From Rhizobiales bacterium PAR1 (GTDB taxonomy: Bacteria; Pseudomonadota; Alphaproteobacteria; Rhizobiales; Beijerinckiaceae), in assembly GCA_002256205.1 (NCBI GenBank), contig NKIW01000003.1:186001-250000 (forward strand): DNA of 64,000 nucleotides. Direction: 5' to 3'. Position numbers and translations under genes: made by a program. Of this stretch, positions 36,638-48,868 are shown piece after piece. A model generated the notes under the pieces. The model ran no database searches, was not told the DNA's origin, and saw only the letters and a list, made by a program, of their open reading frames with translations. Each line of letters opens with the position of its first letter. Position 1 is the first letter of the stretch.

Positions 36638-39025
36638 TCAACCGTTGTTGGCGCTGATCAGCCCGCGTTGCAGCAGATAACGCCGCACCATGCCGCGCGC
36701 CGGCTCGAAGTGGAACAAGACCTTCTGCGCGCCTTGCGGCAGGATCACGGCGCGGAAAATGCCATTGGCCCGCAGGATTTTCGCTGGCATGCCATCGACG
36801 GTCGCGAACCACCACGGATGCCAGACATCGTTGAGCACCAGCACGCCGCCCTTGGGCGCATTCACTTCAATTTCGATCTCGGTATTGTTGTAGCTCACGA
36901 TTTTCGCCGTACCGCCCGCCGATTTACGCGGCAAGGGCAGGGCGCTCGGCTCGACATAGGCGATCTTGGTGAAATCGGTCGAGGGCCAGTTGCCGGATTT
37001 GATCAGCGAATCCTGATCGAGCGGCACGGCCTGTGGCACCACCATCACCCGCGGCAGGGTATCCGGATTTTCATAGATATAGCCGTCCTTGGTCCGCGCG
37101 ACGAGCGGCATCGGGTTCTCGGCGAGGGTGGGGTCGATCTTCTCGATCGGAACCGGGCTCGCGATGAAGCGCAGGCCGAGGAGGTTCGCGAGCGGCGAGC
37201 GATACCCCGGCATGAGGGCCGAGAATTTGCGGTAATCCCACCACGGCACATGGTCACGCGCGCCGACGGCCGCGCCGTAATGGCCGACGCGCAGCGGGTT
37301 GTAGCCGAGCACGTTTTCCAGCTGGTGGATCATTGAAACATTCGGCCAGTCAAACCCGAGGCCGGCAAGTTCGATGCGGTCGCGGCGTTCATCGTTCTGG
37401 ACGACATGCGATTTGAGGAAATCGATCGTCTCGTTATGCTTGTCCGGCTCCATGAACGCGTAGTTTTCCGGCGGTAGCGCGGTCGAGTGGTTGGGGCGGA
37501 TGTTCCACGCGAGGTCGGCCGTCAGGCAGATCGACAGGGCCGCTGCAACGCGCATCGGGTGGCTGCGCGCGTGGCGCACCGCATAGGCCAGTGCCGCGAA
37601 GCTCACGCTGATCGTCAGCAGCGCCACCATGATTTCCGGCATCGCCTGCCCGAGCTTGCCAAGCCAGATCGCCATGCCGATCCCGATCAGGATCGGGACA
37701 ACAAGAATGAGGCTCAGCGTACGATCCGCCAGCGGCGGCAGGCGTTGCTCGCCTCGTTGCAGGATCGCGTTGAGGCCGAAGCCAGCGAGAATGGCCCCGA
37801 GCGCGCCGACGAGGAAGGTGGAATCCGCCGGGCGGCGGAAGAGATCTGCGCCGGGGAGGGCATGGTAGAGCGCTTCGAACACCGGTGTATAGCGTCCGAG
37901 CGAATAGGCGATCATCAGGCCGAACAGGATCGCCAGCACGATCATCCGGCGCGAATAGGCCTGCTTGTTGGTGAGCCAGGTCGCGATGCCGATCACCGGC
38001 AGAATACCGGTGTAGAAATTCGCCATGTTCCGGGACACCCACGTCTGGACCATATAGGGCCAATGAACGCTCGGTGCGCCCCAGAAATCCTGCTGCGGGC
38101 CGATGGTGCCGAAGATGTTCGAGACGACAAAGGTGATCAGGCTCGTCGGGTGAAGCGAGCCGAGGAACGCGTCCTCGATGTCGATATGCGCGCGGTTCGA
38201 GCCATCGGCGAAACTCAGCACCATCAACATCGGCAAGGCAATCATCACGATGCCGACAATGCCACCTGCCGCCAGTGGGCGGATTGTGTCACGCACCCGC
38301 TTCCAGCGCGCCTCGCCGCCGAGCCAGTGCACGATGACGAAGGCGGCCAGCGTAATCAGGACAAGGAAGGACACTTGATCGGGATCGAGGACGCAAAGCG
38401 CGGCAAAAAAGCCGGAGAGCGCGCCGTAACGCGCGGAGTGCAGGCGCAGGCCGCGTTCCAGCATCCAGAGCGCCCACGGAAAATAGATCAGGCTCATGAT
38501 CTGGCCGACATGTTGAATGCGCCATGCCGCACTCGAACCAAAACCAAAAGCAAGCGCCGCTACCAGTGCGGCGGCAGGATGCCAGCGCCTGTCACGCGCA
38601 AAGCCGAGCACGCCAAGCGCACCAAATACCAGCGAGCCATAAGTCACGCTGTCGACCATCTGGAAAGTCGGGTTGGCCGTCAGCATCGCCAGAATGAGAT
38701 GCGGCGGTGAGAAGATCATCGCCTGCGGGTCTGCGATCTGCGGGTGCCCGCTGAACACATAGGGGTTCCAGAACGGGCTCTGGCCGGAGTGGATTGCCTG
38801 CGCGAGGAAGGCGACCTGCGCCTGAAAATGCGCCTTGGCATCCCAGGGGATCGTGACCCGGCCGGAAACCCAGGGCCAGGCGAGAACCAGCGAACAGGCG
38901 AGAAGTAGCGCCGCGATAACAGCCCACTGCCGTAGCCCGCTATCAAGCGGCGGCAGCGGATAATCAATCCGAGGAGATGGGGCCAGTTTGGCCTGTTTCT
39001 CCACAGTGTCATGACGCTGAAGCAT
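36638..39025 (-). CDS. Large multi-pass membrane protein, YfhO/GT-C-like
   Basis: A 795-residue inner-membrane protein with about 12 helices in the first 500 residues and a C-terminal globular domain. The first loop carries PWDAKAHFQAQVAFL and, later, FWNPYVFSGHPQIADPQA, which is typical of YfhO-family and related GT-C glycosyltransferase folds that use polyprenyl-linked sugars. The ending (VWHPWWFATVDGMPAKILRANGIFRAV, quoted in part as VDGMPAKILRANG) is also YfhO-like. It may glycosylate a cell-envelope polymer, but no acceptor is evident. It stands alone, converging on the merR gene. Confidence 0.78.
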   Translation of the reverse strand: MLQRHDTVEKQAKLAPSPRIDYPLPPLDSGLRQWAVIAALLLACSLVLAWPWVSGRVTIPWDAKAHFQAQVAFLAQAIHSGQSPFWNPYVFSGHPQIADPQAMIFSPPHLILAMLTANPTFQMVDSVTYGSLVFGALGVLGFARDRRWHPAAALVAALAFGFGSSAAWRIQHVGQIMSLIYFPWALWMLERGLRLHSARYGALSGFFAALCVLDPDQVSFLVLITLAAFVIVHWLGGEARWKRVRDTIRPLAAGGIVGIVMIALPMLMVLSFADGSNRAHIDIEDAFLGSLHPTSLITFVVSNIFGTIGPQQDFWGAPSVHWPYMVQTWVSRNMANFYTGILPVIGIATWLTNKQAYSRRMIVLAILFGLMIAYSLGRYTPVFEALYHALPGADLFRRPADSTFLVGALGAILAGFGLNAILQRGEQRLPPLADRTLSLILVVPILIGIGMAIWLGKLGQAMPEIMVALLTISVSFAALAYAVRHARSHPMRVAAALSICLTADLAWNIRPNHSTALPPENYAFMEPDKHNETIDFLKSHVVQNDERRDRIELAGLGFDWPNVSMIHQLENVLGYNPLRVGHYGAAVGARDHVPWWDYRKFSALMPGYRSPLANLLGLRFIASPVPIEKIDPTLAENPMPLVARTKDGYIYENPDTLPRVMVVPQAVPLDQDSLIKSGNWPSTDFTKIAYVEPSALPLPRKSAGGTAKIVSYNNTEIEIEVNAPKGGVLVLNDVWHPWWFATVDGMPAKILRANGIFRAVILPQGAQKVLFHFEPARGMVRRYLLQRGLISANNG

Positions 39026-39082: not shown

Positions 39083-40204
39083 TTAAACGTTCACAGGTGC
39101 GTGCGCCACCATCGCCTCGAAGTCAATGAAATGACCGGCACGATCCCGCTTGGAAGCAAGATAACGGACGTTTTCCGCTGTCTGGCGACCATAGGCGCGG
39201 TTGTCCGACACCACATCGAGCCCCGCGGCCTCAAGGGCACGCAGCTTTTCAGGGTTGTTGGTCATCACCTTGACGCTGGCGACGCCCAATTGCTTGAGCA
39301 TCTCGGCAGCAAAATCGAAACGGCGCTGGTCGAGCCCGAAGCCGAGCACTTCATCGGCGTCATAGGTATCCCAGCCCTGACTCTGCAGCTTGTAGGCGCG
39401 CATCTTGTTGGCGATGCCGTTCCCGCGTCCCTCTTGATCGAGGTACAGCAGAATGCCGCCTTCGCCTTCCGCCATTTTCTGAACGGTGCCACGCAGCTGA
39501 TCGCCGCAATCGCACTTTAGCGAGCCGAAGAGATCCCCCGTCAAGCACGCCGAATGCATGCGGATCGCCACGGGTTTGGCAAAATCCGGCTTGCCGACGA
39601 TGATCGCGACCTGATCGCGCATACCTTCGCCGCCGCGAAACACCACAAACTCGGTATCCGCCGCAAATTCGAGCGGAACGGGTGCGCGGCCCACGATCCG
39701 GATCGCGCGGACCTGACTGGCCCGATACTCCATGAGATCCGCCAGCGTGACGCGAACCATGCTGGCCGGAATGGTCGAGGTCGGCATGGGGACAGCGTAA
39801 ACCGCCGGCGTGACCAGCGTCAGACGAGCGAGTTCAAGCGCAGCCTCATCAAGCGCGACTACGGGTGCGACAGGCGCATCAATCCGCCCCTCGATCTTGA
39901 GGCCGAGCATTTCCGCCCGTTCCGCGTTCGGCACCGGAAAGGAGACCGCTCCGGGAAGGGTGCGATCAAGCCCGAGACGACGCAGACGCGCCGCCGGCAG
40001 CACTAGCCGGGCGCGCGCCGGCGCCACCTTGTCGAGCGCGGCGGCCACGCGGCCATCAAGCGCTTCAACGTTGAGCACGATCAGCGCTTCTTCGTTCTGG
40101 AGGATGGCTACCGGGCGTCCGGCGCGGTATTCTGCGATGGCCCGATCTACGGCGAGTTCACCAGCGGTATCGAAGAGCCCGAGAATCTGACTGACGTCAC
40201 TCAT
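39083..40204 (-). CDS. ribA: GTP cyclohydrolase II with degenerate RibB-like N-terminal domain
   Basis: Opens the imidazole ring of GTP and releases formate and pyrophosphate, the entry to riboflavin synthesis and other GTP-derived compounds. The C-terminal half (about 180-370) has the zinc ligands Cys220, Cys231, Cys233 in SACLTGDLFGSLKCDCGDQL and the catalytic DQEGRGNG. Residues 17-140 align in outline with RibB (AIAEYRAGRPVAIL), but the RibB metal motif DDEDRENEGD is replaced by QNEEALIVLN, so that half cannot be an active RibB. It is divergent from a stand-alone RibD-type reductase, away from the main riboflavin operon. Confidence 0.93.
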   Translation of the reverse strand: MSDVSQILGLFDTAGELAVDRAIAEYRAGRPVAILQNEEALIVLNVEALDGRVAAALDKVAPARARLVLPAARLRRLGLDRTLPGAVSFPVPNAERAEMLGLKIEGRIDAPVAPVVALDEAALELARLTLVTPAVYAVPMPTSTIPASMVRVTLADLMEYRASQVRAIRIVGRAPVPLEFAADTEFVVFRGGEGMRDQVAIIVGKPDFAKPVAIRMHSACLTGDLFGSLKCDCGDQLRGTVQKMAEGEGGILLYLDQEGRGNGIANKMRAYKLQSQGWDTYDADEVLGFGLDQRRFDFAAEMLKQLGVASVKVMTNNPEKLRALEAAGLDVVSDNRAYGRQTAENVRYLASKRDRAGHFIDFEAMVAHAPVNV

Positions 40205-40388
40205 TTACGCCTCTTTCGTCCATGTTTTGCGGTCTTGTCGGTTGGAAAATTCCACCGGATGGACACCGTGTACCGTCATAATGCCCGCATTCTTGTGTCA
40301 GCGAACATGAACGGCTCATGTCTGCCTTTCGGACAATTAAAAAAAACGTTATCCGGCGGTGAACCGCTTCTCCAGATGAAAGTCGCTC

Positions 40389-41126
40389 ATGGTGCAGGAA
40401 GTTCCGAACATGGGCGATTTTGCTTCAAACGGCGAAGCGTCCAACCCGTTTACGCACTTCCGACGCGATCAGATGGATCGGCCCTTCATCGTTGCGCAAT
40501 TGGGCCAGTCTCTCGATGGACGCATTGCGACGCGGACCGGCGATAGCCGCTATATCGGGGCTGAGCCCTCGCTCTGCCACCTCCATCGCATGCGCGCCGC
40601 AGTTGACGCGGTTGTGGTCGGCATCGGCACGGTGCTCGCGGATAACCCCCAGCTCAACGTCCGCCGTTGCGAGGGTCGAAACCCTGCACGCGTCGTGATC
40701 GATGCGAAGGGGCTTCTGCCGCCAGATGCCAAGTGCCTGGATGGTGCGGATGGCGCACGCAGGATCGTCTTTCGTGGCGCGGGGCAGGCGTATCCGCCGC
40801 TGCCCGCAGGCGTGGAGACCGTCACTCGCCCGGTCGATGCTGCCGGCCATTTCGACCTTGTGGATATGGCAAGAGCGCTCAACGCGCTCGGGTTTGACAA
40901 GGTTCTGATTGAAGGTGGCGCGCGTATCATTTCTCGGGCGATCGACGCCGGGATCGTCGATCGTCTGCACCTGATGATCTCGGCGGTGATCCTTGGCTCG
41001 GGGCAGGCGGGGCTTGATCTGGCCCCGATCGACTACCTGAAGGATGCGCTCCGCCCGGCGGTCACAGTAATTCCGCTTGGCGCAGGCGAGGTACTCTACG
41101 ATTGCGCATTGAAACCGAAGCGCTAA
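40389..41126 (+). CDS. Stand-alone RibD C-terminal reductase-type protein
   Basis: A 245-residue NADPH-dependent reductase of the RibD_C/dihydrofolate-reductase-like fold. PFIVAQLGQSLDGRIATRTGDSRYI (quoted in part as QLGQSLDGRIATRTGD), AAVDAVVVGIGTVLADNPQLN and KVLIEGGARIISRAIDAG are the cofactor and substrate motifs. There is no deaminase half. A complete ribD exists at 23254-24363, so this copy is probably not needed for riboflavin itself and may reduce a related GTP-derived intermediate. It diverges from ribA, with a 184-base shared upstream region. b561 follows after 27 bases. Confidence 0.9.
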   Translation: MVQEVPNMGDFASNGEASNPFTHFRRDQMDRPFIVAQLGQSLDGRIATRTGDSRYIGAEPSLCHLHRMRAAVDAVVVGIGTVLADNPQLNVRRCEGRNPARVVIDAKGLLPPDAKCLDGADGARRIVFRGAGQAYPPLPAGVETVTRPVDAAGHFDLVDMARALNALGFDKVLIEGGARIISRAIDAGIVDRLHLMISAVILGSGQAGLDLAPIDYLKDALRPAVTVIPLGAGEVLYDCALKPKR

Positions 41127-41153
41127 GCTCGCCTGCATCGAAGGAGAGATCCC

Positions 41154-41699
41154 ATGGCTGGCCTGCGCCCGATTGCCTATTCCACAACGCAAAAAGCGCT
41201 GCACTGGATCATTGCCCTGATGGTGATGATTCTGCTGCCTGTCGGCTTTTACATGAAGGATCGCGGCCTCGCGACCAACTTTGATGCCCTCACGGACCGA
41301 CTTTACACCGCGCATAAAACCTTCGGTGCGCTGGTACTTCTGCTGGTTATCCTGCGTATCGTTGTGCGCGTCCGACGTGGCACGCCGGCCCCGGAGCCGA
41401 CACTCAACCGCCTGCAAATCATCGCTGCCGAGGCGGTCCATGGGCTGATTTATGTCCTGCTGCTGATGGTGCCCGTGCTCGGCTGGTTCGGCGTTTCAGC
41501 TTATGGCGCGCGGGGCATTCTGGGCGGGTTCAGCTTGCCGGAAGTCCTCGGCAAGGATACGCTACTGGCGGAGATCATCCTGAAATATCATGGCGTTGCT
41601 GCCATCGGGCTTTTGCTGCTGATCGGCGCCCATATTGGCGCTGCCGTGCTGCATCACTTCATCCTGAAGGATGGCGTGGTCAAACGCATGCTGCGCTAG
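41154..41699 (+). CDS. Cytochrome b561-family membrane protein
   Basis: A 181-residue, four-helix inner-membrane protein of the bacterial cytochrome b561 (CybB) type. Candidate haem ligands are the His of TQKALHWIIALM, YTAHKTFGALV, AVHGLIYVLLL and GAHIGAAVLHHF. It passes electrons from quinol or to superoxide in characterised members. AAGGAG precedes the ATG at 41154. It follows the RibD-type reductase closely, so it may be in the same operon. A palindromic repeat begins right after its stop. Confidence 0.9.
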   Translation: MAGLRPIAYSTTQKALHWIIALMVMILLPVGFYMKDRGLATNFDALTDRLYTAHKTFGALVLLLVILRIVVRVRRGTPAPEPTLNRLQIIAAEAVHGLIYVLLLMVPVLGWFGVSAYGARGILGGFSLPEVLGKDTLLAEIILKYHGVAAIGLLLLIGAHIGAAVLHHFILKDGVVKRMLR

Positions 41700-41700
41700 A

Positions 41701-41748
41701 GCATTTTCCGGTCAAGTGGATACCGGTTGAACGAAAGAAAATGCGACA
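41701..41748. repeat. 48-base interspersed palindromic element, copy B
   Basis: Same length and ends (GCATTTTC ... GAAAATGC, then GACA) as the element at 22657-22704, with about 36 of 48 matching positions and a central ACCGGT. It begins one base after the cytochrome b561 stop. Both copies sit directly behind a stop codon. Confidence 0.75.
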
Positions 41749-41759
41749 AAGACAAGAAA

Positions 41760-42614
41760 TCAGCGCGGATGGGCCATGATATCGGTATGGCCCGTCATCA
41801 TCCACGAACCTTTTTTGCGCGCTTCCGCCTTTCGGAAGGCGAGCCAATCCGCGAGCGCTTCTGGCGCGATAAGGCCCGTTTCGCCCACGGCACCGGCGAG
41901 TCCACCGAGCAGTTCCTGCACCAGCGCCTTGTCGGATGTGTTGAGTACCCACGGTGAATCGCCCGTCTCGACCGAGTAGCCCGCTGCGACAAAAGCATCG
42001 ACCAGCGCTTTAGCGGCCTTCGGGCCTGCTGCGGGTCCAAAACCCTTGTCGCGCTTCTGGTGTTCCCCGAAAGCGGCAACGACAGCGCGATCCTGCGCAT
42101 GGGCGGGCGAGAATTCATCGCGCCCGTCATAGGTCAGCACGGTGTAGAAATTCGCGCCGGACGCCGCAACCGCCTTGGCGAAGTGCGCCATCCATGCGGT
42201 GGAAATCAGATCGAACAACGCCGAGGCGGTCACCAGATCCGGGTGCTTCTCCAGCACCGACTCAAGGTCGAGATTGAGATCGGCGATGCGAAAGGACACG
42301 CCAATATTCTTCCCCCCCTTAATCAGCACGAGACTGTCGCCGATGGCGCGTGCCTCGTCTGCCCAGAGGGTCAGCACCCGTGCGGCCTCTTCGAGCAGGG
42401 CAGGATTGTAGTCGACCAGCGTCCATTCCTGCATGGGTCCAAGGAGCGGGGCTGTCGCGCGCAGGTTCGAGCCCGTCCCCGAGCCAAGATCGACGACGCG
42501 AACACTCGGCGTATCGATAAAGCGTCCAGCAAGCCGTCGCACGAGATCGGGGTTGCGCGAACGATGGTCGACACCCTCGCGAAGCGCCAACCATGCGGCG
42601 GAAAAGCCGGTCAT
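41760..42614 (-). CDS. SAM-dependent class I methyltransferase
   Basis: A 284-residue Rossmann-fold methyltransferase. Motif I, VRVVDLGSGTGSNLRA, is at 38-53, an acidic motif VDYNP at about 68-72, and DLVTASALFDLIS further on. No substrate-specific domain is recognisable. Its start overlaps the stop of the glycosyltransferase gene by one base, so the four genes from 45098 to 41760 read as one leftward operon, of which this is the last. Confidence 0.88.
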   Translation of the reverse strand: MTGFSAAWLALREGVDHRSRNPDLVRRLAGRFIDTPSVRVVDLGSGTGSNLRATAPLLGPMQEWTLVDYNPALLEEAARVLTLWADEARAIGDSLVLIKGGKNIGVSFRIADLNLDLESVLEKHPDLVTASALFDLISTAWMAHFAKAVAASGANFYTVLTYDGRDEFSPAHAQDRAVVAAFGEHQKRDKGFGPAAGPKAAKALVDAFVAAGYSVETGDSPWVLNTSDKALVQELLGGLAGAVGETGLIAPEALADWLAFRKAEARKKGSWMMTGHTDIMAHPR

Positions 42615-43678
42615 TACGAGGCCTTCCGCGTCAGCGACAACGGATGCAACGCGCCGGCGATGATGCCCGCTGTATCATCCCAAGTCGGCAGTTTTTCGCC
42701 GGCGAGATAGGCGGCGTCAGCAAGGCGCGCCCGCAGCGACGGATCAGCCATCGCCTGTTCGAGCGCGACGCGCAGGGCATCGGTATCGCCGGGCGGAACC
42801 TTGAGGCCCGCACCATCCGGAACGGTCTGGCTCGCGGCCCCGCCAGTCGTGGTGATGATCGGCAACCCGCGCTGGAGCGCTTCGGCCAGCACCATGCCGT
42901 ACCCTTCGAACAGCGAGGACATCACAAAGAGATCAGCCTTCTCGTAGAGTTCATCGAGTTCCTTGTCGCGCACCGCGCCGACAAGCTGGATGCGATCCGA
43001 AAGACCTTCGCGGTCGATCTGCTGTTGCAGCGCATTGACCGTATCGAGCGCACGTGCGGCGCCGACAATGCGCAGACGCCAGTTGCGCTTCTTGAGGCCA
43101 GCGAGGGCTTCAACGAGCACAGCATAGCCCTTGCGCGGGACAATCGAGCCGATGGCGAGGAGTTCCAGCGTGGCGTTGCCGGAGCCCGTGGCGCGCGCCT
43201 TGCGGGCAGTGCCGGGCTCGGCAACCGTGATCTTGCGCTCGGGAACGCCGAAATCGCCCTGCAAAATCTTGCCGGTCAGCGGCGAGGTCACGACGACATG
43301 GCTCGCGAGCGCCAGCGCCGCCGCTTCCGAAAGATGCAGCGCCTGCGCACGCTCGGCGGAAATGCCGTTCTCCAGTGCGAGGGGATGGTGACACAGCGCC
43401 ACCAAGGGGCGGTTGAAGGAGCGGATCAAATCCGCCGGCATCGCGCCATAAGCCAGCCCGTCGATCAGCAGCACGGCACTCGGCGGCAACCCGCGCACGA
43501 TGGCAGCGCAATCCGCGAGGTCTTCCGGTGTGGCATTGGGGAAGGCGCCGGGGAGTGCCACATGCATCGTCTGCACGCCATGCTGGGGCAGCAGCCGGAT
43601 GACCGCGCGATCATAGGCATAACCGCCGGTCGGCAGGCTGAGATCGCCGGGGATCAGGAACGCGACTTCGCTCATCAT
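42614..43678 (-). CDS. GT4-family glycosyltransferase
   Basis: A retaining glycosyltransferase of about 354 residues with the GT-B fold. The donor-site Glu motif is FEGYGMVLAEALQRGLPIITT, the N-terminal acceptor domain begins FLIPGDLSLPTGGYAYDR, and the middle has LLAIGSIVPRKGY. The TTG at 43681 is in frame, but the ATG at 43678 or 43675 is preferred. It is cytoplasmic, with no membrane helix. It is separated from the PTPS-like gene by five bases and overlaps the methyltransferase, so its acceptor may be a small molecule made by this operon. Confidence 0.9.
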   Translation of the reverse strand: MMSEVAFLIPGDLSLPTGGYAYDRAVIRLLPQHGVQTMHVALPGAFPNATPEDLADCAAIVRGLPPSAVLLIDGLAYGAMPADLIRSFNRPLVALCHHPLALENGISAERAQALHLSEAAALALASHVVVTSPLTGKILQGDFGVPERKITVAEPGTARKARATGSGNATLELLAIGSIVPRKGYAVLVEALAGLKKRNWRLRIVGAARALDTVNALQQQIDREGLSDRIQLVGAVRDKELDELYEKADLFVMSSLFEGYGMVLAEALQRGLPIITTTGGAASQTVPDGAGLKVPPGDTDALRVALEQAMADPSLRARLADAAYLAGEKLPTWDDTAGIIAGALHPLSLTRKAS

Positions 43679-43683
43679 CAACC

Positions 43684-44085
43684 TCAGGAAACCGGGCCTT
43701 CGAACCAGGCGCGCGCGAGATCGGTTTCGTGCAGCGTCACGCGGATTTTAGAAAGGCCCTTGCCATCCTCGCCGAGCGCGCCGGATTTTGCCGCCTTCAC
43801 CATCTCCTGAAAGATGTGGTGGGCAAGAAATTCGGTCGTCGTGAGAATGCCCTTGAAGGCCGGAACCTCATCAAGGTTCTGGTATTTCAGCGGCTTGAGC
43901 ACGGCAGCGAGCGTATCGAGCGCCGCGCCGATATCGACCACGACATTCTGCTTGGTCATTTTTTCGCGGAAGAACGCGACATCGACGACAAAGGTCGCGC
44001 CGTGCATGTTCTGCGCCGGGCCGAAGAAGGGATCGGGCAGCGAATGGCCGATCATGATGCGGTCACGGACTTCTACGGCGAACAT
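43684..44085 (-). CDS. Divergent PTPS/QueD-family protein
   Basis: A 133-residue tunnelling-fold protein of the 6-pyruvoyl-tetrahydropterin/6-carboxytetrahydropterin synthase family. The family keeps three His metal ligands, one in FxxxH and two in HGH; here His15 (IGHSL) and His29 (MHGATF) remain, but the third is Ala31, and the catalytic Cys before HGH is also missing. The later acidic motif LHETDLARAW and the TTEFLAHHIF helix are kept. Thus it is either a metal-binding variant or has a changed reaction. ATG 44085 overlaps the dehydrogenase stop. GPAQNMHGATF resembles a rhizobial subfamily I recall but cannot check. Confidence 0.85.
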   Translation of the reverse strand: MFAVEVRDRIMIGHSLPDPFFGPAQNMHGATFVVDVAFFREKMTKQNVVVDIGAALDTLAAVLKPLKYQNLDEVPAFKGILTTTEFLAHHIFQEMVKAAKSGALGEDGKGLSKIRVTLHETDLARAWFEGPVS

Positions 44086-45098
44086 CAAGGCTCCTGATAC
44101 GTCACGAGGGTCACCAAACCCGGAGCATCTCCTGCAAGAAGCCTCGGAATGGCAGGGGGCAAATCGGAAAACCGGATCGTCTCGGTGATGAGCTGATCGA
44201 GCTTGTCATCCGCCACTAAGCGTAGCGCTGCCTGAAGCCGGGATGAATAAGTCCAGCCGCGGGCCGCATGTCCCGGAGAAATCGTGCCGACTTGCGAAGA
44301 AACAAGGCTGACGCGCCCGGCATGGAACAAACCACCGAGCGGCGCCGTGATGTTCCTGCTGCCATACCACGAGAGTTCGACAACCTTCGCCTCTTGACCG
44401 GCTGCAGCAATCGCGGTCGCAAGGCCGGCTTCGCTCGCGGAGGTGTGAAAGACAATATCCACGCCCTTCGGCGTATGGGGCGGTTGAGCGAAGTTTGCCC
44501 CGAAATGCCGCGCGATCATCGCGCGCTCGGGGTTGATATCGACAAGCGTCACCTCAGTGCCCGGCATTCTCGCGGCGAGATAGGTGATCAGCAGACCAAC
44601 CAGCCCGCCGCCGACCACCACCACCTTGTCCGCAGCGCTTACGCCGGAATCCCAGATCGCGTTGAGCGCGGTTTCCATGTTCGCCGCCAGAGCGGCACGC
44701 GCGGGGGGCACGAAATCCGGCACGACATTCAGCCAGCTCACGTTGCAGGAAAAGCGCTCCTGATGTGGATGCAGCACGAAAACGCGTTGGCCGACCCACG
44801 CCTTTGGCCCATCTTCCACCACGCCGACGGCGCAATAGCCGTATTTCACCGGGAAGGGGAAATCCCCCTCCTGCAAGGGGCAGCGCATCCGCGACTCTTC
44901 TTCCCGCGGCACGAGGCCGGAGGCGATGAGCCGTTCAGTGCCGCGCGAGAGCACAGTAAACTCCGCGCGGACCACGGCTTCGCTTTCGCTCGCGGAACCC
45001 AGAGCAACGTCCCGGAGTTCGCCCTGCATCGGCGCCGTATAGAAGAGCGCGCGGGCCGTCTTTGAATTTTTCGGGGAGGGCGCCACATGATCTGCCAT
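44085..45098 (-). CDS. BchC-like medium-chain dehydrogenase/reductase
   Basis: A 337-residue NAD(P)-dependent oxidoreductase of the MDR (zinc alcohol dehydrogenase-like) superfamily. The Rossmann loop is VVVVGGGLVGLLITYLA. Where zinc enzymes have the catalytic Cys, it has SRGTERL (51-57), the motif of the BchC-like group, and the second zinc ligand region reads FPVKYGYCAVG, so the standard catalytic zinc site is absent. ATG 45098 after AAGGAGCG is preferred over 45200. It is the first gene of the leftward operon with the PTPS-like protein, a glycosyltransferase and a methyltransferase. Confidence 0.87.
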   Translation of the reverse strand: MADHVAPSPKNSKTARALFYTAPMQGELRDVALGSASESEAVVRAEFTVLSRGTERLIASGLVPREEESRMRCPLQEGDFPFPVKYGYCAVGVVEDGPKAWVGQRVFVLHPHQERFSCNVSWLNVVPDFVPPARAALAANMETALNAIWDSGVSAADKVVVVGGGLVGLLITYLAARMPGTEVTLVDINPERAMIARHFGANFAQPPHTPKGVDIVFHTSASEAGLATAIAAAGQEAKVVELSWYGSRNITAPLGGLFHAGRVSLVSSQVGTISPGHAARGWTYSSRLQAALRLVADDKLDQLITETIRFSDLPPAIPRLLAGDAPGLVTLVTYQEP

Positions 45099-45238
45099 AA
45101 CTGTGATCGCTCCTTGAAAAGGGACTGGTCTATGCAATGCCGGATGGCTTCCGTTCAGCTTCGATCCGCCATACGACAAGAACAGAGTGAAGTCTTTCAA
45201 GCCTTTCCACGATGGGAAAGGCTCCGCAAGAGCCGATG

Positions 45239-47053
45239 AGACAACCCCTTGAGGTCAAACGCCTGATGCCCGCCGAATCCACGCCCGTTTCTCCGCGCAT
45301 CGCCCTGACGCCCACGGGCACCCAGAGCGCCGAGGTGCTGATGCTGCGCCGTGCGATTGTCGCCGGGCTCAACATCCTCCTTTATTTTGGCCTCGCGTTC
45401 TGGGCGTGGAGCCTTCTCGGCGCGGGTGGCTGGACGCTTGTCGATATCCTGCTCTTCATTTGCTTCCTTCTCGGTACGCCCTGGGCGGTCCTCGGCTTCT
45501 GGAACGCGCTGATCGGCCTTTGGTTGCTGCATTCAAACCGCGATGCCATGGCGGATGTCGCGCCCTTCGCGGCGCTCGACGATCCCGCCGCGCCCATCGC
45601 GCTCAAGACCGCGATCTTCATGACGCTGCGCAACGAAGACCCAACGCGCGCGCTTCACCGGATGAAACTCATCAAAGCCGAGATCGATGCGAGCGGTTTC
45701 GGCGAGAAATTCGCCTATTTTCTGCTCTCTGATACCAACAAGGATGACGTTGCAGCCATCGAGGCGGCCGGCGTTGCTAAATGGAAGGCGGAGGCGGGCG
45801 AAGGCGCCGCGATCACCTATCGCCGCCGCGAGGATAACACCGGCTTCAAGGCCGGTAATGTGCGGGATTTCCTCGAAAACTGGGGTCACGCCTTCGACCT
45901 GATGCTGCCACTTGATGCCGATAGCCTGATGGATGCGAAAACGATCCTCCATCATGTCCGCATCATGCAGGCGAACCCCAAGCTCGGCATTCTTCAAAGC
46001 CTCGTTGTCGGCATGCCCTCGCGTTCGGCGTTTGCGCGCATCTTCCAATTCGGCATGCGGCAGGGCATGCGCACCTACACCATGGGGCAGGCGTGGTGGG
46101 TGGGCGATTGCGGCCCGTTCTGGGGCCATAACGCCCTCGCGCGTATCGCGCCCTTCCGCGATCAGTGTGAGCTCCCTGTCCTGCCGGGCGAAGCGCCCTT
46201 CGGCGGGCATATCCTCAGCCATGATCAGGTAGAGGCGACCTTCATGCGCCGCGCGGGTTATGAAGTGCGCGTGATGCCGGAGGAGGGTGGCTCATGGGAG
46301 GAAAACCCGCCGACGCTACTCGAATTCATGAAGCGTAACACGCGCTGGTGTCAGGGAAACTTACAGTATTTCAAGCTGCTGAACACGCCGAACCTCTATC
46401 CTGTCAGTCGCTTCCAGCTCATCTGGGCGATCCTGATGTTCCTCGGCATTCCGGCCTGGACCTTCATGCTGCCGCTCGCGGCGCTCAAACCCTTCGACAG
46501 CGAAGGGCTCGCGGGCTTTTCCAACTGTTCGGCGCTGACGCTCTACATCCTGTTCACGCTGATGAACCTGATGCCTAAAATCGCCGGCCTGATCGATATC
46601 GTGCTGACGCCGGGCGGCACGGCGCGCTATGGCGGCACGCCGAAATTTCTCTTCGCCGGCATCACCGAGATCGGTTTTGCTTGGATCTTGGGCGCGTCCG
46701 ATACTTTCAAGACCACGGTGTTCATCGTCGGCCTTATCTTCGGCAAGTCGATCACATGGGGCGGGCAGGCGCGCGATGCGCATGGCGTGCCGTGGGACGT
46801 CGCGGCGCAGAACCTCTGGCCGCAGACGCTTTTCGGCGTCGTTGTGGTGGGACTTATGGCCGCGACAAGCCTCGAATTCGCACTCTGGGCTTTGCCGCTG
46901 ACCTTTGGCTTCCTGATCGCCATCCCCTTCGCTGTCATCTCCGCCGATCCCGGATTGGGCGAAACCTTGGTCCGCAACGGGCTCTATGCGATCCCTGAGG
47001 AAATCGAAAAGCCGGAGATTGTCCTGAAGGCGCAACTGGGAGAAACGGTGTGA
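45239..47053 (+). CDS. opgH: Glucan biosynthesis glucosyltransferase H
   Basis: Membrane GT2 enzyme that polymerises the glucose backbone of osmoregulated periplasmic glucans. About 604 residues from ATG 45239 (other in-frame ATGs at 45212 and 45266 are possible). It has two N-terminal helices, the cytoplasmic GT2 domain with DxD-type LDADSLM and the NTRWCQGN acceptor motif, and several C-terminal helices. No opgG partner is visible. The next gene overlaps by four bases and encodes an FkbM methyltransferase, followed by an unknown protein; these may modify or help export the glucan. Divergent from the BchC-like gene. Confidence 0.92.
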   Translation, partial: RQPLEVKRLMPAESTPVSPRIALTPTGTQSAEVLMLRRAIVAGLNILLYFGLAFWAWSLLGAGGWTLVDILLFICFLLGTPWAVLGFWNALIGLWLLHSNRDAMADVAPFAALDDPAAPIALKTAIFMTLRNEDPTRALHRMKLIKAEIDASGFGEKFAYFLLSDTNKDDVAAIEAAGVAKWKAEAGEGAAITYRRREDNTGFKAGNVRDFLENWGHAFDLMLPLDADSLMDAKTILHHVRIMQANPKLGILQSLVVGMPSRSAFARIFQFGMRQGMRTYTMGQAWWVGDCGPFWGHNALARIAPFRDQCELPVLPGEAPFGGHILSHDQVEATFMRRAGYEVRVMPEEGGSWEENPPTLLEFMKRNTRWCQGNLQYFKLLNTPNLYPVSRFQLIWAILMFLGIPAWTFMLPLAALKPFDSEGLAGFSNCSALTLYILFTLMNLMPKIAGLIDIVLTPGGTARYGGTPKFLFAGITEIGFAWILGASDTFKTTVFIVGLIFGKSITWGGQARDAHGVPWDVAAQNLWPQTLFGVVVVGLMAATSLEFALWALPLTFGFLIAIPFAVISADPGLGETLVRNGLYAIPEEIEKPEIVLKAQLGETV

Positions 47054-47820
47054 GCCTATCCAAAGCCGAGATCGCCGCGCTCACCGCGCGTTGGCAGCAT
47101 CTCCAGCGCTCGTTCGAGGTCTATTACGGTGATCAGCCGCGTGATGACGCGATGGATGTGCTCTATGCGCGCTTTGTGAAGCCCGGCGGGCTCGCCTTTG
47201 ATATCGGCAGCCATGTCGGCGACAGGATCGGCTCTTTCCGTCGCCTTGGCGCGAGGGTTGTTGCGCTGGAGCCGCAGCCTGATTGCGCGGCCGCCGTGCG
47301 GGCGATCTACGGCGCGGACGCCAATGTCACGCTTCTGGAAGCCGCCTGCGGTCCGAAACCGGGCGCGCTCACATTGCATGTCAATTCCGCCAATCCCACT
47401 GTGACCACAGCCTCACCTGAGTTCGTGAAAGCGGCTGAAGGGGCGGCGGGTTGGGAAGGGCAGGTCTGGGACCGGGCGATCGAGGTGCCGGTGACAACGC
47501 TCGATGCGCTGATCGCCGCCCACGGCACACCGGATTTCGTTAAAATCGACGTCGAGGGTTTCGAGGCCGATGTCCTTGCGGGCCTCAACCAGCCGATCCC
47601 GGCGCTGTCGTTCGAATTCACCACCATCCAGCGCGATGTTGCCTGCAAATGCATCGCCATGATCGCGGCGATTGCGCCCTACCGGTTCAAGATCGCCCTC
47701 GGCGAAAGCCAGCGCTTCAGCTTCGATGAGCCGCTGCTGGCGGGTGACATGGCCGCGCATATCCTCTCGCTGCCCCATGAGGCCAATTCCGGAGATGTCT
47801 ATGCCTATCGCGGGACCTGA
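47050..47820 (+). CDS. FkbM-family methyltransferase
   Basis: A 256-residue SAM-dependent methyltransferase of the FkbM type, which often O-methylates sugars. Motif I is LAFDIGSHVGDRIGSF and the family region DFVKIDVEGFEADVLAGL follows at about 158-175. It starts at GTG 47050, overlapping the opgH stop, which implies coupling. O-methylation of the periplasmic glucan, or of a related envelope sugar, is a reasonable inference from context only. Confidence 0.88.
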   Translation: MSLSKAEIAALTARWQHLQRSFEVYYGDQPRDDAMDVLYARFVKPGGLAFDIGSHVGDRIGSFRRLGARVVALEPQPDCAAAVRAIYGADANVTLLEAACGPKPGALTLHVNSANPTVTTASPEFVKAAEGAAGWEGQVWDRAIEVPVTTLDALIAAHGTPDFVKIDVEGFEADVLAGLNQPIPALSFEFTTIQRDVACKCIAMIAAIAPYRFKIALGESQRFSFDEPLLAGDMAAHILSLPHEANSGDVYAYRGT

Positions 47821-47839
47821 GAGGCTGCTCCGTCGGGTC

Positions 47840-47923
47840 GTTTTTCTTCTTACACGTACCGTTTTCCTTCTCACCCGGCCCGTTTTCCTTCTCACCCGGC
47901 CCGTTTTCCTTCTCACCATGGTG
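47840..47923. repeat. Four tandem 21-base units coding VFLLTR(P/T)
   Basis: Four head-to-tail 21-base units: 47840-47860 (diverged), 47861-47881 and 47882-47902 (identical) and 47903-47923 (its end runs into an ATG at 47918). In the frame of the next gene they read VFLLTRT-VFLLTRP-VFLLTRP-VFLLTMV. The unit starts with GTTTTCCTTCTCACC. The array fills the leader between the FkbM gene and the unknown gene downstream. Confidence 0.85.
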
Positions 47924-47929
47924 ATCACG

Positions 47930-48868
47930 ATGTCCCAAGGCCAAGCCGATCAAACCAAGCCGGATCAAACGGTTCTTGGCGCGCACAACAAGAAGCCTGA
48001 GAGCCTCACCGTGAAGGTCGAGAACCATTCGGAACCTGAGGTTTGCGCGGAGAAGGACAATATCGACATCCGTTTTCTCAGCCCCGAGGTCCGGAGTTTC
48101 CGCATTCAGGCGATCCATCCCGCCTATATCGGCACGCTGCGCGAGGATCTTGCGCTGCCGGATTTTACCGATTGCGACATGTCCAGCGATCCGGTGTTCA
48201 ACCCCGGCAAGCCGCGCCAGGTCACGCTCTATGAAACGCCCTGGCTCTGGATCGTCGGGCAGGTGTATCCCGGCTTCTGGCGCCCGGCAGATGTGCCGGT
48301 GAGGATCGGCGACAAGGTCGAGCACGGCATCCACCTCGTGCAGGTCTACCAGCGCACCGCGCAGCGCATGGAGGAAATGCTGGTGGTGTACCCACCCGAT
48401 GGCTACTGGCGTGCGCGACCGCTCCCCGCCAAACACATGAACTGGACCGCCTATGGCTCCTCCTTCATGGTCGGACCGGTGACGCATGAGGGGCGCCCCG
48501 TTGTGGCCTTCAAGGAATTGCGCTTCGATCCCGAAACGCTGACCTTCCACTTTCCCTTCGTCGCGGGCGGGGAAGGCAGCCTGAAGCTCGACAGGCTCGA
48601 TACCGATCACATCAGTCTGGAAGTCGCGCTAAAAGGCGATCTGCCGAATGACAAACCCTTCGCGGCCCTGCGCTCGATGTACGTCACCGAAATCAACAAT
48701 GATGCCTCGCGCGTTGCCTGGCGCGAGAAGGGCAAGACCCGCTGGGGCGAGGAGCATATCCTTGATTACAATGGTGGCGAGGCCACGGAATTCTGGGCCG
48801 GACGGTACACGCCTTCGCGCCACAACATGTCCGCGCCGGATATGACCTTCTCGCGGTTCGGAAAATAG
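47930..48868 (+). CDS. Protein of unknown function downstream of opgH-FkbM
   Basis: About 312 residues from ATG 47930 (312 with MSQGQADQTK as start); ATG 47918 and an in-frame ATG at 47801 are alternatives, the latter putting the VFLLTRP repeats into an N-terminal signal-like segment. I recognise no domain. The protein is acidic and rich in aromatic residues, with ETPWLWIVGQVYPGFWRPADVP, PPDGYWRARPLPAKHMNW (both quoted in part) and no membrane helix in the main body. No clear ribosome site precedes either ATG. It is probably in the opgH operon and may act on the glucan; this rests on position alone. Confidence 0.7.
   Translation: MSQGQADQTKPDQTVLGAHNKKPESLTVKVENHSEPEVCAEKDNIDIRFLSPEVRSFRIQAIHPAYIGTLREDLALPDFTDCDMSSDPVFNPGKPRQVTLYETPWLWIVGQVYPGFWRPADVPVRIGDKVEHGIHLVQVYQRTAQRMEEMLVVYPPDGYWRARPLPAKHMNWTAYGSSFMVGPVTHEGRPVVAFKELRFDPETLTFHFPFVAGGEGSLKLDRLDTDHISLEVALKGDLPNDKPFAALRSMYVTEINNDASRVAWREKGKTRWGEEHILDYNGGEATEFWAGRYTPSRHNMSAPDMTFSRFGK

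What the first reader, a model, noticed from the sequence alone, without database searches (positions are those of the whole stretch)
39083..45098. Candidate pathway for a glycosylated, methylated GTP-derived compound
Within 6 kb lie ribA (GTP ring opening), a stand-alone RibD-type reductase, cytochrome b561, and a leftward overlapping operon of a BchC-like dehydrogenase, a divergent PTPS/QueD-like protein, a GT4 glycosyltransferase and a SAM methyltransferase. The organism has a complete ribD-ribE-ribH operon 15 kb away, so the second reductase and the isolated ribA are free for another purpose. GTP cyclohydrolase, PTPS-fold, reductase, methylation and glycosylation together match the logic of glycosylated pterins (for example those of cyanobacteria and green sulfur bacteria) but not any pathway I know in this order. 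The overlap of ATG/stop codons in the four-gene operon is seen directly; the product and the link to ribA are inferred.
Basis: partly seen in the sequence, partly recalled or inferred. Interest (0 to 1): 0.75.

Follow-up and report, generated by a model that had tools for sequence, protein, structure and literature searches.

The report
Conserved zinc-less pterin-enzyme gene cluster
A set of neighbouring genes, kept together in bacteria as distant as relatives of rhizobia and Streptomyces, appears to make an unknown GTP-derived compound using borrowed vitamin B2 enzymes and a pterin-type enzyme that has lost its usual catalytic parts.

Summary
The genes are really there, and the neighbourhood is strongly conserved. 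The "PTPS/QueD-like" protein is a PTPS-IV (signature FGPAQ): its family lacks QueD's catalytic Cys, third zinc His and catalytic His, but keeps two glutamates (recalled as pterin-binding). Its closest solved structure is SCO6650 (3d7j). In 98 of 112 long loci, from Proteobacteria and Actinomycetota, it lies with the same dehydrogenase, GT4 and methyltransferase. Compared by genome, the stand-alone RibD reductase occurs in 31 of 39 genomes with PTPS-IV and 0 of 16 without; in four it is far from the operon but beside a RibA. I read this as a pathway GTP -> RibA -> reductase -> PTPS-IV -> dehydrogenase, GT4, methyltransferase -> membrane step. Gene association is shown; chemistry and product are inferred. 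PTPS-IV and its ribA/RibD_C neighbours are in print; I found no published function.

The parts
39083..40204 (-). RibA: GTP cyclohydrolase II with a long N-terminal extension (PRK08815 kind)
   Evidence: NCBIfam NF006456 490.7 bits, over its cut-off of 464. The three zinc Cys and the Tyr of the NKxRAY motif line up with E. coli RibA 2bz0 (residue roles recalled).
40389..41126 (+). Stand-alone RibD_C reductase without deaminase domain; homology begins near residue 21-35, so the true start may lie downstream
   Evidence: PF01872 121 bits. Best PDB profile hit 6p8c, named 2,5-diamino-6-ribosylamino-4(3H)-pyrimidinone 5'-phosphate reductase. At 140 bits or more in 31 of 39 PTPS-IV genomes and 0 of 16 without.
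41154..41699 (+). Cytochrome b561-type membrane protein
   Evidence: PF01292 99.5 bits. A relative within 9.5 kb of PTPS-IV in 55 of 112 long loci.
41760..42614 (-). Class I SAM methyltransferase of the cluster
   Evidence: Weak Pfam methyltransferase matches. Family alignment. Model pLDDT 96; nearest folds are methyltransferases of many kinds, 9-19% identity among the 50 listed. In 107 of 112 long loci.
42614..43678 (-). GT4 glycosyltransferase (ATG at 43678 or 43675; the listed ORF starts at a TTG, 43681)
   Evidence: PF00534 111 bits. Nearest solved relatives 6kih (Tll1590) and 7qsg (D-inositol 3-phosphate glycosyltransferase). In 96 of 112 long loci on the same strand within 2.5 kb.
43684..44085 (-). 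PTPS-IV: T-fold protein with FGPAQxxHGA in place of CxxxHGH
   Evidence: FGPAQ..HGA in 143 of 145 full-length matches and HGH in 0 of 145. 3d7j (SCO6650): profile E 9e-57, Foldseek rmsd 1.0 A. The only PTPS-family match of the genome at E 0.001.
44085..45098 (-). MDR dehydrogenase, distantly BchC-like; usual MDR zinc ligands not seen (by eye in the family alignment, ligand positions recalled)
   Evidence: At 400 bits or more in 39 of 39 PTPS-IV genomes and 0 of 16 without.
45212..47053 (+). MdoH-like membrane GT2 of a cluster-specific clade, divergent from the MDR gene
   Evidence: 475 bits or more in 32 of 39 PTPS-IV genomes and 0 of 16 others; other MdoH paralogues score 201-301 bits.
47050..47820 (+). 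FkbM-type methyltransferase overlapping mdoH; accessory
   Evidence: TIGR01444 90 bits. A relative in 47 of 123 loci after three duplicates are removed.

Best explanation
The locus is a biosynthetic cluster for a GTP-derived small molecule that is not riboflavin, folate or queuosine. Proposed order: RibA opens GTP to 2,5-diamino-6-ribosylamino-4(3H)-pyrimidinone 5'-phosphate. The stand-alone reductase reduces it without prior deamination, or reduces a later dihydropterin. PTPS-IV binds the 2-amino-4-oxo-pyrimidine edge through its two retained glutamates and performs a step without the zinc/Cys-Asp-His machinery, most plausibly a rearrangement, ring closure or side-chain cleavage that gives a bicyclic pterin-like product. 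The MDR enzyme oxidises or reduces a side-chain alcohol, GT4 adds a sugar and the SAM enzyme a methyl group. A membrane enzyme finishes or exports the product: a dedicated MdoH-like GT2 in many Alphaproteobacteria, and in others a CDP-alcohol phosphotransferase, often with an LPG-synthase-TM flippase-like protein. Shown: gene families, conservation, co-occurrence, residue losses. Inferred: every reaction, the order, and the product. RibA may serve riboflavin as well.
For: MDR, PTPS-IV, GT4 and MT together in 98 of 112 long loci, including a named gammaproteobacterium, genomes of the phylum outside the window's class and Actinomycetota. Among 55 genomes of the order (39 with PTPS-IV, 16 without): MDR 39 vs 0, reductase 31 vs 0, Fisher p 2.5e-8, MdoH clade 32 vs 0, RibA of 160 bits or more 24 vs 2, p 0.001. 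In G065, G070 and G106 the reductase sits beside a RibA of about 168 bits, and in G100 beside one of 128 bits, all about 56 kb to 0.9 Mb from the PTPS operon, so the association is not mere linkage. Same-family genomes without the operon (G042, G117, G147) also lack the reductase while holding a RibD-like frame. Catalytic residues of QueD replaced, glutamates kept. MdoH and CDP-alcohol phosphotransferase rarely occur together: 62 only MdoH, 25 only the latter, 4 both, 21 neither of 112, p 1.7e-8. In the Streptomyces locus the RibA has Met at the Tyr of NKxRAY and lies beside a creatininase-family gene, which fits a FAPy-forming enzyme plus deformylase arriving at the same intermediate (activity of SCO6655 recalled).
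Against: 14 of 112 long loci miss part of the block as scored, and two Streptomyces plasmid copies (L151, L152) stand alone. RibDC or RibA lies within 9.5 kb in only 79 of 112 long loci, and 4 of 39 genomes have neither a RibA of 160 bits nor the reductase anywhere. Two of the 31 reductase matches (G004, G100) contain an in-frame stop. RibA of 160 bits or more also occurs in 2 of 16 genomes without PTPS-IV, and one RibBA without the zinc Cys (G108) reaches 161.5 bits, so that threshold does not mark active RibA cleanly. The creatininase of L150 is nearer to MftE (141 bits) than to ArfB (37 bits), and creatininase also occurs with Tyr-type RibA, so it need not be a deformylase. Fisher tests are not corrected for phylogeny, and the 16 negatives are 16 of 111. 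No product or reaction has been observed.
Confidence: 0.6

Rival explanations
1. RibA and the stand-alone reductase serve riboflavin (RibA supplying the GCH II that the degenerate RibBA lacks), and the MDR-PTPS-GT4-MT operon beside them is a separate, unrelated pathway.
For: In the RibBA of this genome and 40 further RibBA-type proteins the GCH II domain has no zinc-cysteine triad (41 proteins). The cluster RibA passes a curated GCH II model. No RibA lies within 9.5 kb of the operon in 64 of 112 long loci.
Against: 13 of the 16 genomes without PTPS-IV have as their only PF00925 match a RibBA without that triad, yet hold a RibD-like frame, so they appear to manage without the cluster RibA. The reductase occurs in none of the 16. 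Clusters in Actinomycetota and outside the class repeat the association.
Confidence: 0.2
2. An envelope glycan or glycolipid operon: MdoH, GT4, FkbM, YfhO, CDP-alcohol phosphotransferase and flippase make a membrane-linked glycan, and the pterin-like enzymes only supply a decorating group or redox cofactor for it.
For: Dedicated MdoH clade, flippase-like and CDP-alcohol phosphotransferase genes in loci mostly without MdoH, YfhO just after RibA on the same strand in 14 of 126 loci.
Against: The most constant part of the cluster is MDR-PTPS-MT, not the membrane enzymes; 21 of 112 long loci have neither MdoH nor the CDP-alcohol enzyme within 9.5 kb.
Confidence: 0.15
3. A true QueD or PTPS: queuosine, biopterin or folate pathway enzyme with chance neighbours.
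For: Automatic annotation calls many of these proteins 6-carboxytetrahydropterin synthase.
Against: HGH motif in 0 of 145 full-length matches, catalytic Cys and His replaced. QueD model 32 bits against a cut-off of 89. No que gene among the ten window proteins scanned. SCO6650 did not catalyse the PTPS reaction (recalled, 2008 structure paper, not held).
Confidence: 0.02

Closest known systems
PTPS-IV subfamily of COG0720 (Phillips et al. 2012, recalled; PMC5445326: section 19 read; PMC5041015: passages seen)
   Same: FGPAQ signature. PMC5445326 lists PF00925 and PF01872 as neighbours of its PTPS-IV cluster of 561 sequences.
   Different: That section names PF00925 as FolE2; here it is RibA (GCH II). 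It does not mention the MDR, GT4, MT, MdoH or CDP-alcohol genes. A passage of PMC5041015 gives an unpublished archaeal F420 role, which nothing here supports.
SCO6650 of Streptomyces coelicolor (PDB 3d7j)
   Same: Same family and fold: profile E 9e-57, Foldseek TM 0.95, 49% identity to the window protein. Recalled report: no zinc, no catalytic triad, no PTPS activity.
   Different: No substrate known to me. SCO6655, a FAPy-forming RibA homologue, is recalled to lie near it; the present work adds the wider conserved cluster.
Cyanopterin or limipterin type glycosylated pterin pathways (recalled)
   Same: GTP start, PTPS-fold protein, glycosyltransferase.
   Different: They use FolE, a zinc PTPS and sepiapterin reductase; here RibA, a PTPS-IV without the zinc motif, a different reductase, an added methyltransferase and membrane enzymes.
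Archaeal and fungal riboflavin route (reductase before deaminase, recalled)
   Same: Stand-alone RibD_C reductase; best PDB profile hits 6p8c and 2azn.
   Different: Here it sits in genomes that also have a bacterial RibD, and tracks PTPS-IV rather than riboflavin genes.

Membership tests
PTPS-IV (COG0720) | FGPAQ signature | tested here: met
   Window residues 22-26; 143 of 145 full-length matches carry FGPAQ..HGA.
PTPS-IV (COG0720) | ribA and RibD_C neighbours | tested here: met
   Both adjacent in the window; RibDC or RibA within 9.5 kb in 79 of 112 long loci.
QueD / PTPS-I | CxxxHGH and Asp-His catalytic pair | tested here: not met
   Ala for Cys, HGA for HGH, Tyr for His against seven QueD-like proteins; HGH in 0 of 145. 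QueD model below cut-off.
PTPS-II / PTPS-III | CxxxxxHGH or ExxHGH | tested here: not met
   HGH in 0 of 145; QxxHGA instead.
GTP cyclohydrolase II (RibA) | Three zinc Cys, Tyr of the NKxRAY motif, curated model | tested here: met
RibD-type pyrimidine reductase | RibD_C domain with conserved motifs, no deaminase domain | tested here: met
   the substrate cannot be tested with these tools.
BchC | Curated BchC model | tested here: not met
   42 bits against a cut-off of 291.
Glucan glucosyltransferase MdoH/OpgH | Curated model | tested here: inconclusive
   850 bits for NF003963 (cut-off 884) but over the cut-offs of NF003958 and NF003962; a clade apart from the other MdoH proteins of these genomes.
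Glycosylated-pterin pathway (cyanopterin type) | FolE, zinc PTPS and sepiapterin reductase in the cluster | tested here: not met
   FolE is on another contig, PTPS lacks the zinc motif, no SDR among the ten window proteins scanned.
Glycosylated-pterin pathway (cyanopterin type) | A glycosylated pterin is made | not testable with these tools
   Needs metabolite work.

The most novel reading that the evidence does not exclude
A previously undescribed class of redox-active, glycosylated and methylated pterin-like (or diaminopyrimidine-ribitol) compound that is attached to or exported across the membrane. It would be made by a zinc-free T-fold enzyme with new chemistry acting on the riboflavin-type ring-opened GTP intermediate, and be finished by interchangeable membrane modules (MdoH-like GT2, or CDP-alcohol phosphotransferase plus flippase), with cytochrome b561 as an electron partner.
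Probability: 0.25. Interest if true: 0.85.

Novelty: new variant of a known kind. Interest (0 to 1): 0.6.

Why it matters
PTPS-IV is a named subfamily for which I found no published function beyond one mention of an unpublished archaeal role, and a crystal structure of a member has existed since 2008. The cluster defined here says which enzymes work with it, which substrates to try first (the RibA and reductase products), and in which harmless organisms to delete it. It would also correct at least hundreds of automatic annotations as 6-carboxytetrahydropterin synthase (581 relatives among the genome-contig stretches, itself a capped list), and could reveal a new membrane-associated cofactor or signal in common soil and water bacteria.

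Tried and rejected
QueD, PTPS-II and PTPS-III activity: rejected on motifs. A viral origin: no relative in viral contigs (37 pattern matches, none confirmed). Plasmids: 20 of 72,556 plasmid records hold it; the other loci come from assembly contigs whose replicon I did not check. A riboswitch linking ribA to riboflavin: no Rfam match in 22000-48900. Promoter and terminator scan: at shuffled level. My own first reading, that the second GCH II domain (RibBA, C19) frees the cluster RibA, was taken from bit scores. I dropped it when the alignment showed that domain has no zinc cysteines. The methyltransferase fold search gave methyltransferases of many kinds and did not point to a substrate. ORF clustering for further neighbour families was dominated by shadow ORFs of high-GC DNA and was used only to spot families seen otherwise. 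Literature: ten searches listed no functional study of PTPS-IV or of the whole cluster that I recognised from titles and abstract starts; the library lacks most subscription papers. Phillips 2012, Spoonamore 2006 and 2008, and Brutinel 2013 (RibBX) are recalled, not read.
Full report
What is there. The seven genes of the finding are present at the stated places and strands, with the stated families. The MDR and PTPS genes overlap by one base in TGATG, GT4 and MT in TAATG; PTPS and GT4 are separated by a few bases. The genome is most likely a Rhabdaerophilum: G375, placed in the same genus as G000, has a contig of 391,809 bases, the length of R. calidifontis NZ_VTRS01000002.1, and the two stretches give the same row of matches. 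The window's PTPS is 90% identical to that species' protein.

The PTPS-like protein. It is the only PTPS-family match of its genome. It carries FGPAQ, reported as the PTPS-IV signature (PMC5445326, section 19 read; PMC5041015, passages). Of 146 loci that I collected (four of them duplicates), 145 gave a full-length match; 143 of these have FGPAQ..HGA, none has HGH, and the two exceptions (L139, L152) keep HGA. Aligned with seven QueD-like proteins from other genomes, the catalytic Cys becomes Ala, HGH becomes HGA and the His of the Asp-His pair becomes Tyr; the two glutamates at residues 86 and 121 stay (their role is recalled). The AlphaFold model (pLDDT 95) matches 3d7j, SCO6650 of Streptomyces coelicolor, at rmsd 1.0 A, and the profile finds the same entry at E 9e-57 against 5e-6 for the next. 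I recall, without having read it here, that SCO6650 was reported to lack zinc and triad and to have no PTPS activity.

Conservation of the neighbourhood. In the order, 39 of 150 genomes have a match; in the phylum, 32 of 397 have a strong one (178 bits or more) and 7 more a weak one of 43-47 bits that proved QueD-like. I took stretches of 8 to 20 kb around the 38 other matches in the order, 20 of the strong matches in the wider phylum, 80 named loci, the best 80 of 581 relatives in a capped scan of genome contigs, and 8 of the 20 plasmid hits. Of these 112: MDR on the same strand within 2.5 kb 107, methyltransferase within 3.5 kb 107, GT4 within 2.5 kb 96, and all three with GT4 allowed up to 6.5 kb 98. 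Within 9.5 kb: RibDC 71, RibA 48, either 79, b561 55, MdoH 66, CDP-alcohol phosphotransferase 29, flippase-like 23, creatininase 11. These are tblastn matches at E 1e-5 or 1e-4. Two Streptomyces plasmid copies stand alone (L151, L152).

Genome-level test. For 55 genomes of the order, 39 with PTPS-IV and 16 without (16 of 111; see Tried and rejected), the MDR is found at 400 bits or more in 39 and 0 (one negative, G005, has a 185-bit relative). The stand-alone reductase at 140 bits or more is in 31 and 0, while every other match, such as the RibD C-terminal domain, stays below 92 bits; two of the 31 contain an in-frame stop. The MdoH clade at 475 bits or more is in 32 and 0, other MdoH proteins scoring 201-301 bits in both sets. 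RibA at 160 bits or more is in 24 and 2. Fisher p values are 2.5e-8 for the reductase and 0.001 for RibA, without correction for relatedness. In G065, G070 and G106 the reductase lies beside a RibA of about 168 bits, in G100 beside one of 128 bits, far from the PTPS operon: a second module that follows the first. In G142, 109 kb from the operon, and in G137 and G089 on other contigs, it stands without a strong RibA. Four of 39 genomes have neither.

RibA and riboflavin. The genome has three PF00925 proteins: the cluster RibA, a RibBA on C19 and a PRK07198-type protein on C7. The GCH II domain of RibBA has none of the three zinc cysteines and lacks the EGRG segment; the cysteine triad is also missing in 40 other RibBA-type proteins examined, two of them with a single Cys. 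Yet same-family genomes G042, G117 and G147 have such a RibBA as their only PF00925 match and hold a RibD-like frame, so GCH II there is either done by RibBA after all or by something unknown. FolE is present on C8.

Reading. The common start is most likely the ring-opened GTP intermediate. Of 59 loci with a RibA match at E 1e-15, 55 show Tyr in the NKxRAY-type motif, 3 were not read by the pattern and 1 (Streptomyces L150) has Met. That one lies beside a creatininase-family gene, which fits the recalled FAPy-forming activity of SCO6655 followed by deformylation; against this, the creatininase is nearer MftE than ArfB and creatininase also occurs beside Tyr-type RibA. The reductase keeps conserved motifs and is nearest to stand-alone diaminopyrimidine reductases; the window cluster holds no deaminase domain. 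PTPS-IV would then act on a 2-amino-4-oxo ring without zinc chemistry; the MDR shows none of the usual MDR zinc ligands (by eye; positions recalled); GT4 and MT decorate. The membrane step differs by lineage: MdoH and the CDP-alcohol phosphotransferase rarely occur together (4 of 112; 62 and 25 alone; 21 neither; p 1.7e-8). The CDP-alcohol protein of L155 is nearest PgsA at 43 bits, far below that cut-off, so its substrate is open. All reactions are inference.

Novelty. PTPS-IV and its ribA/RibD_C neighbours are in print. I found no paper on its function or on the MDR-PTPS-GT4-MT-MdoH/CDP cluster in ten searches of open papers (listed in Tried and rejected). I therefore call it a new variant of a known kind: known enzyme families arranged in a conserved pathway of unknown product.

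Noticed in passing
L205:1370-2680 (own genome C19) and 40 further RibBA-type proteins (L208-L247): In all 41 RibBA-type proteins examined the GCH II domain lacks the zinc-cysteine triad. 13 of 16 genomes without PTPS-IV have no other PF00925 match although they hold a RibD-like frame, so the enzyme for the first riboflavin step in these bacteria is unclear.
   Followed up: partly
window 36638-39025: A YfhO-family membrane protein follows ribA on the same strand; the same arrangement is seen in 14 of 126 loci.
   Followed up: partly
window 47672-48868: ORF downstream of FkbM without a Pfam match; relatives at 44-80% identity occur in 9 of 38 loci of the order.
   Followed up: partly
L155:3205-4791: A gene annotated as sulfatase, without a Pfam match at E 0.001. 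A relative occurs in 14 of 123 loci, 13 of them with a CDP-alcohol phosphotransferase and 10 with a flippase-like gene.
   Followed up: partly
L151, L152 (Streptomyces plasmids): PTPS-IV copies without the rest of the cluster, near cupin, MBL-fold and BTAD/sigma-factor genes.
   Followed up: no
L206:1207-2466 (G000:C7): A PRK07198-type GTP cyclohydrolase II homologue at 740 bits, well over its cut-off of 403.
   Followed up: no
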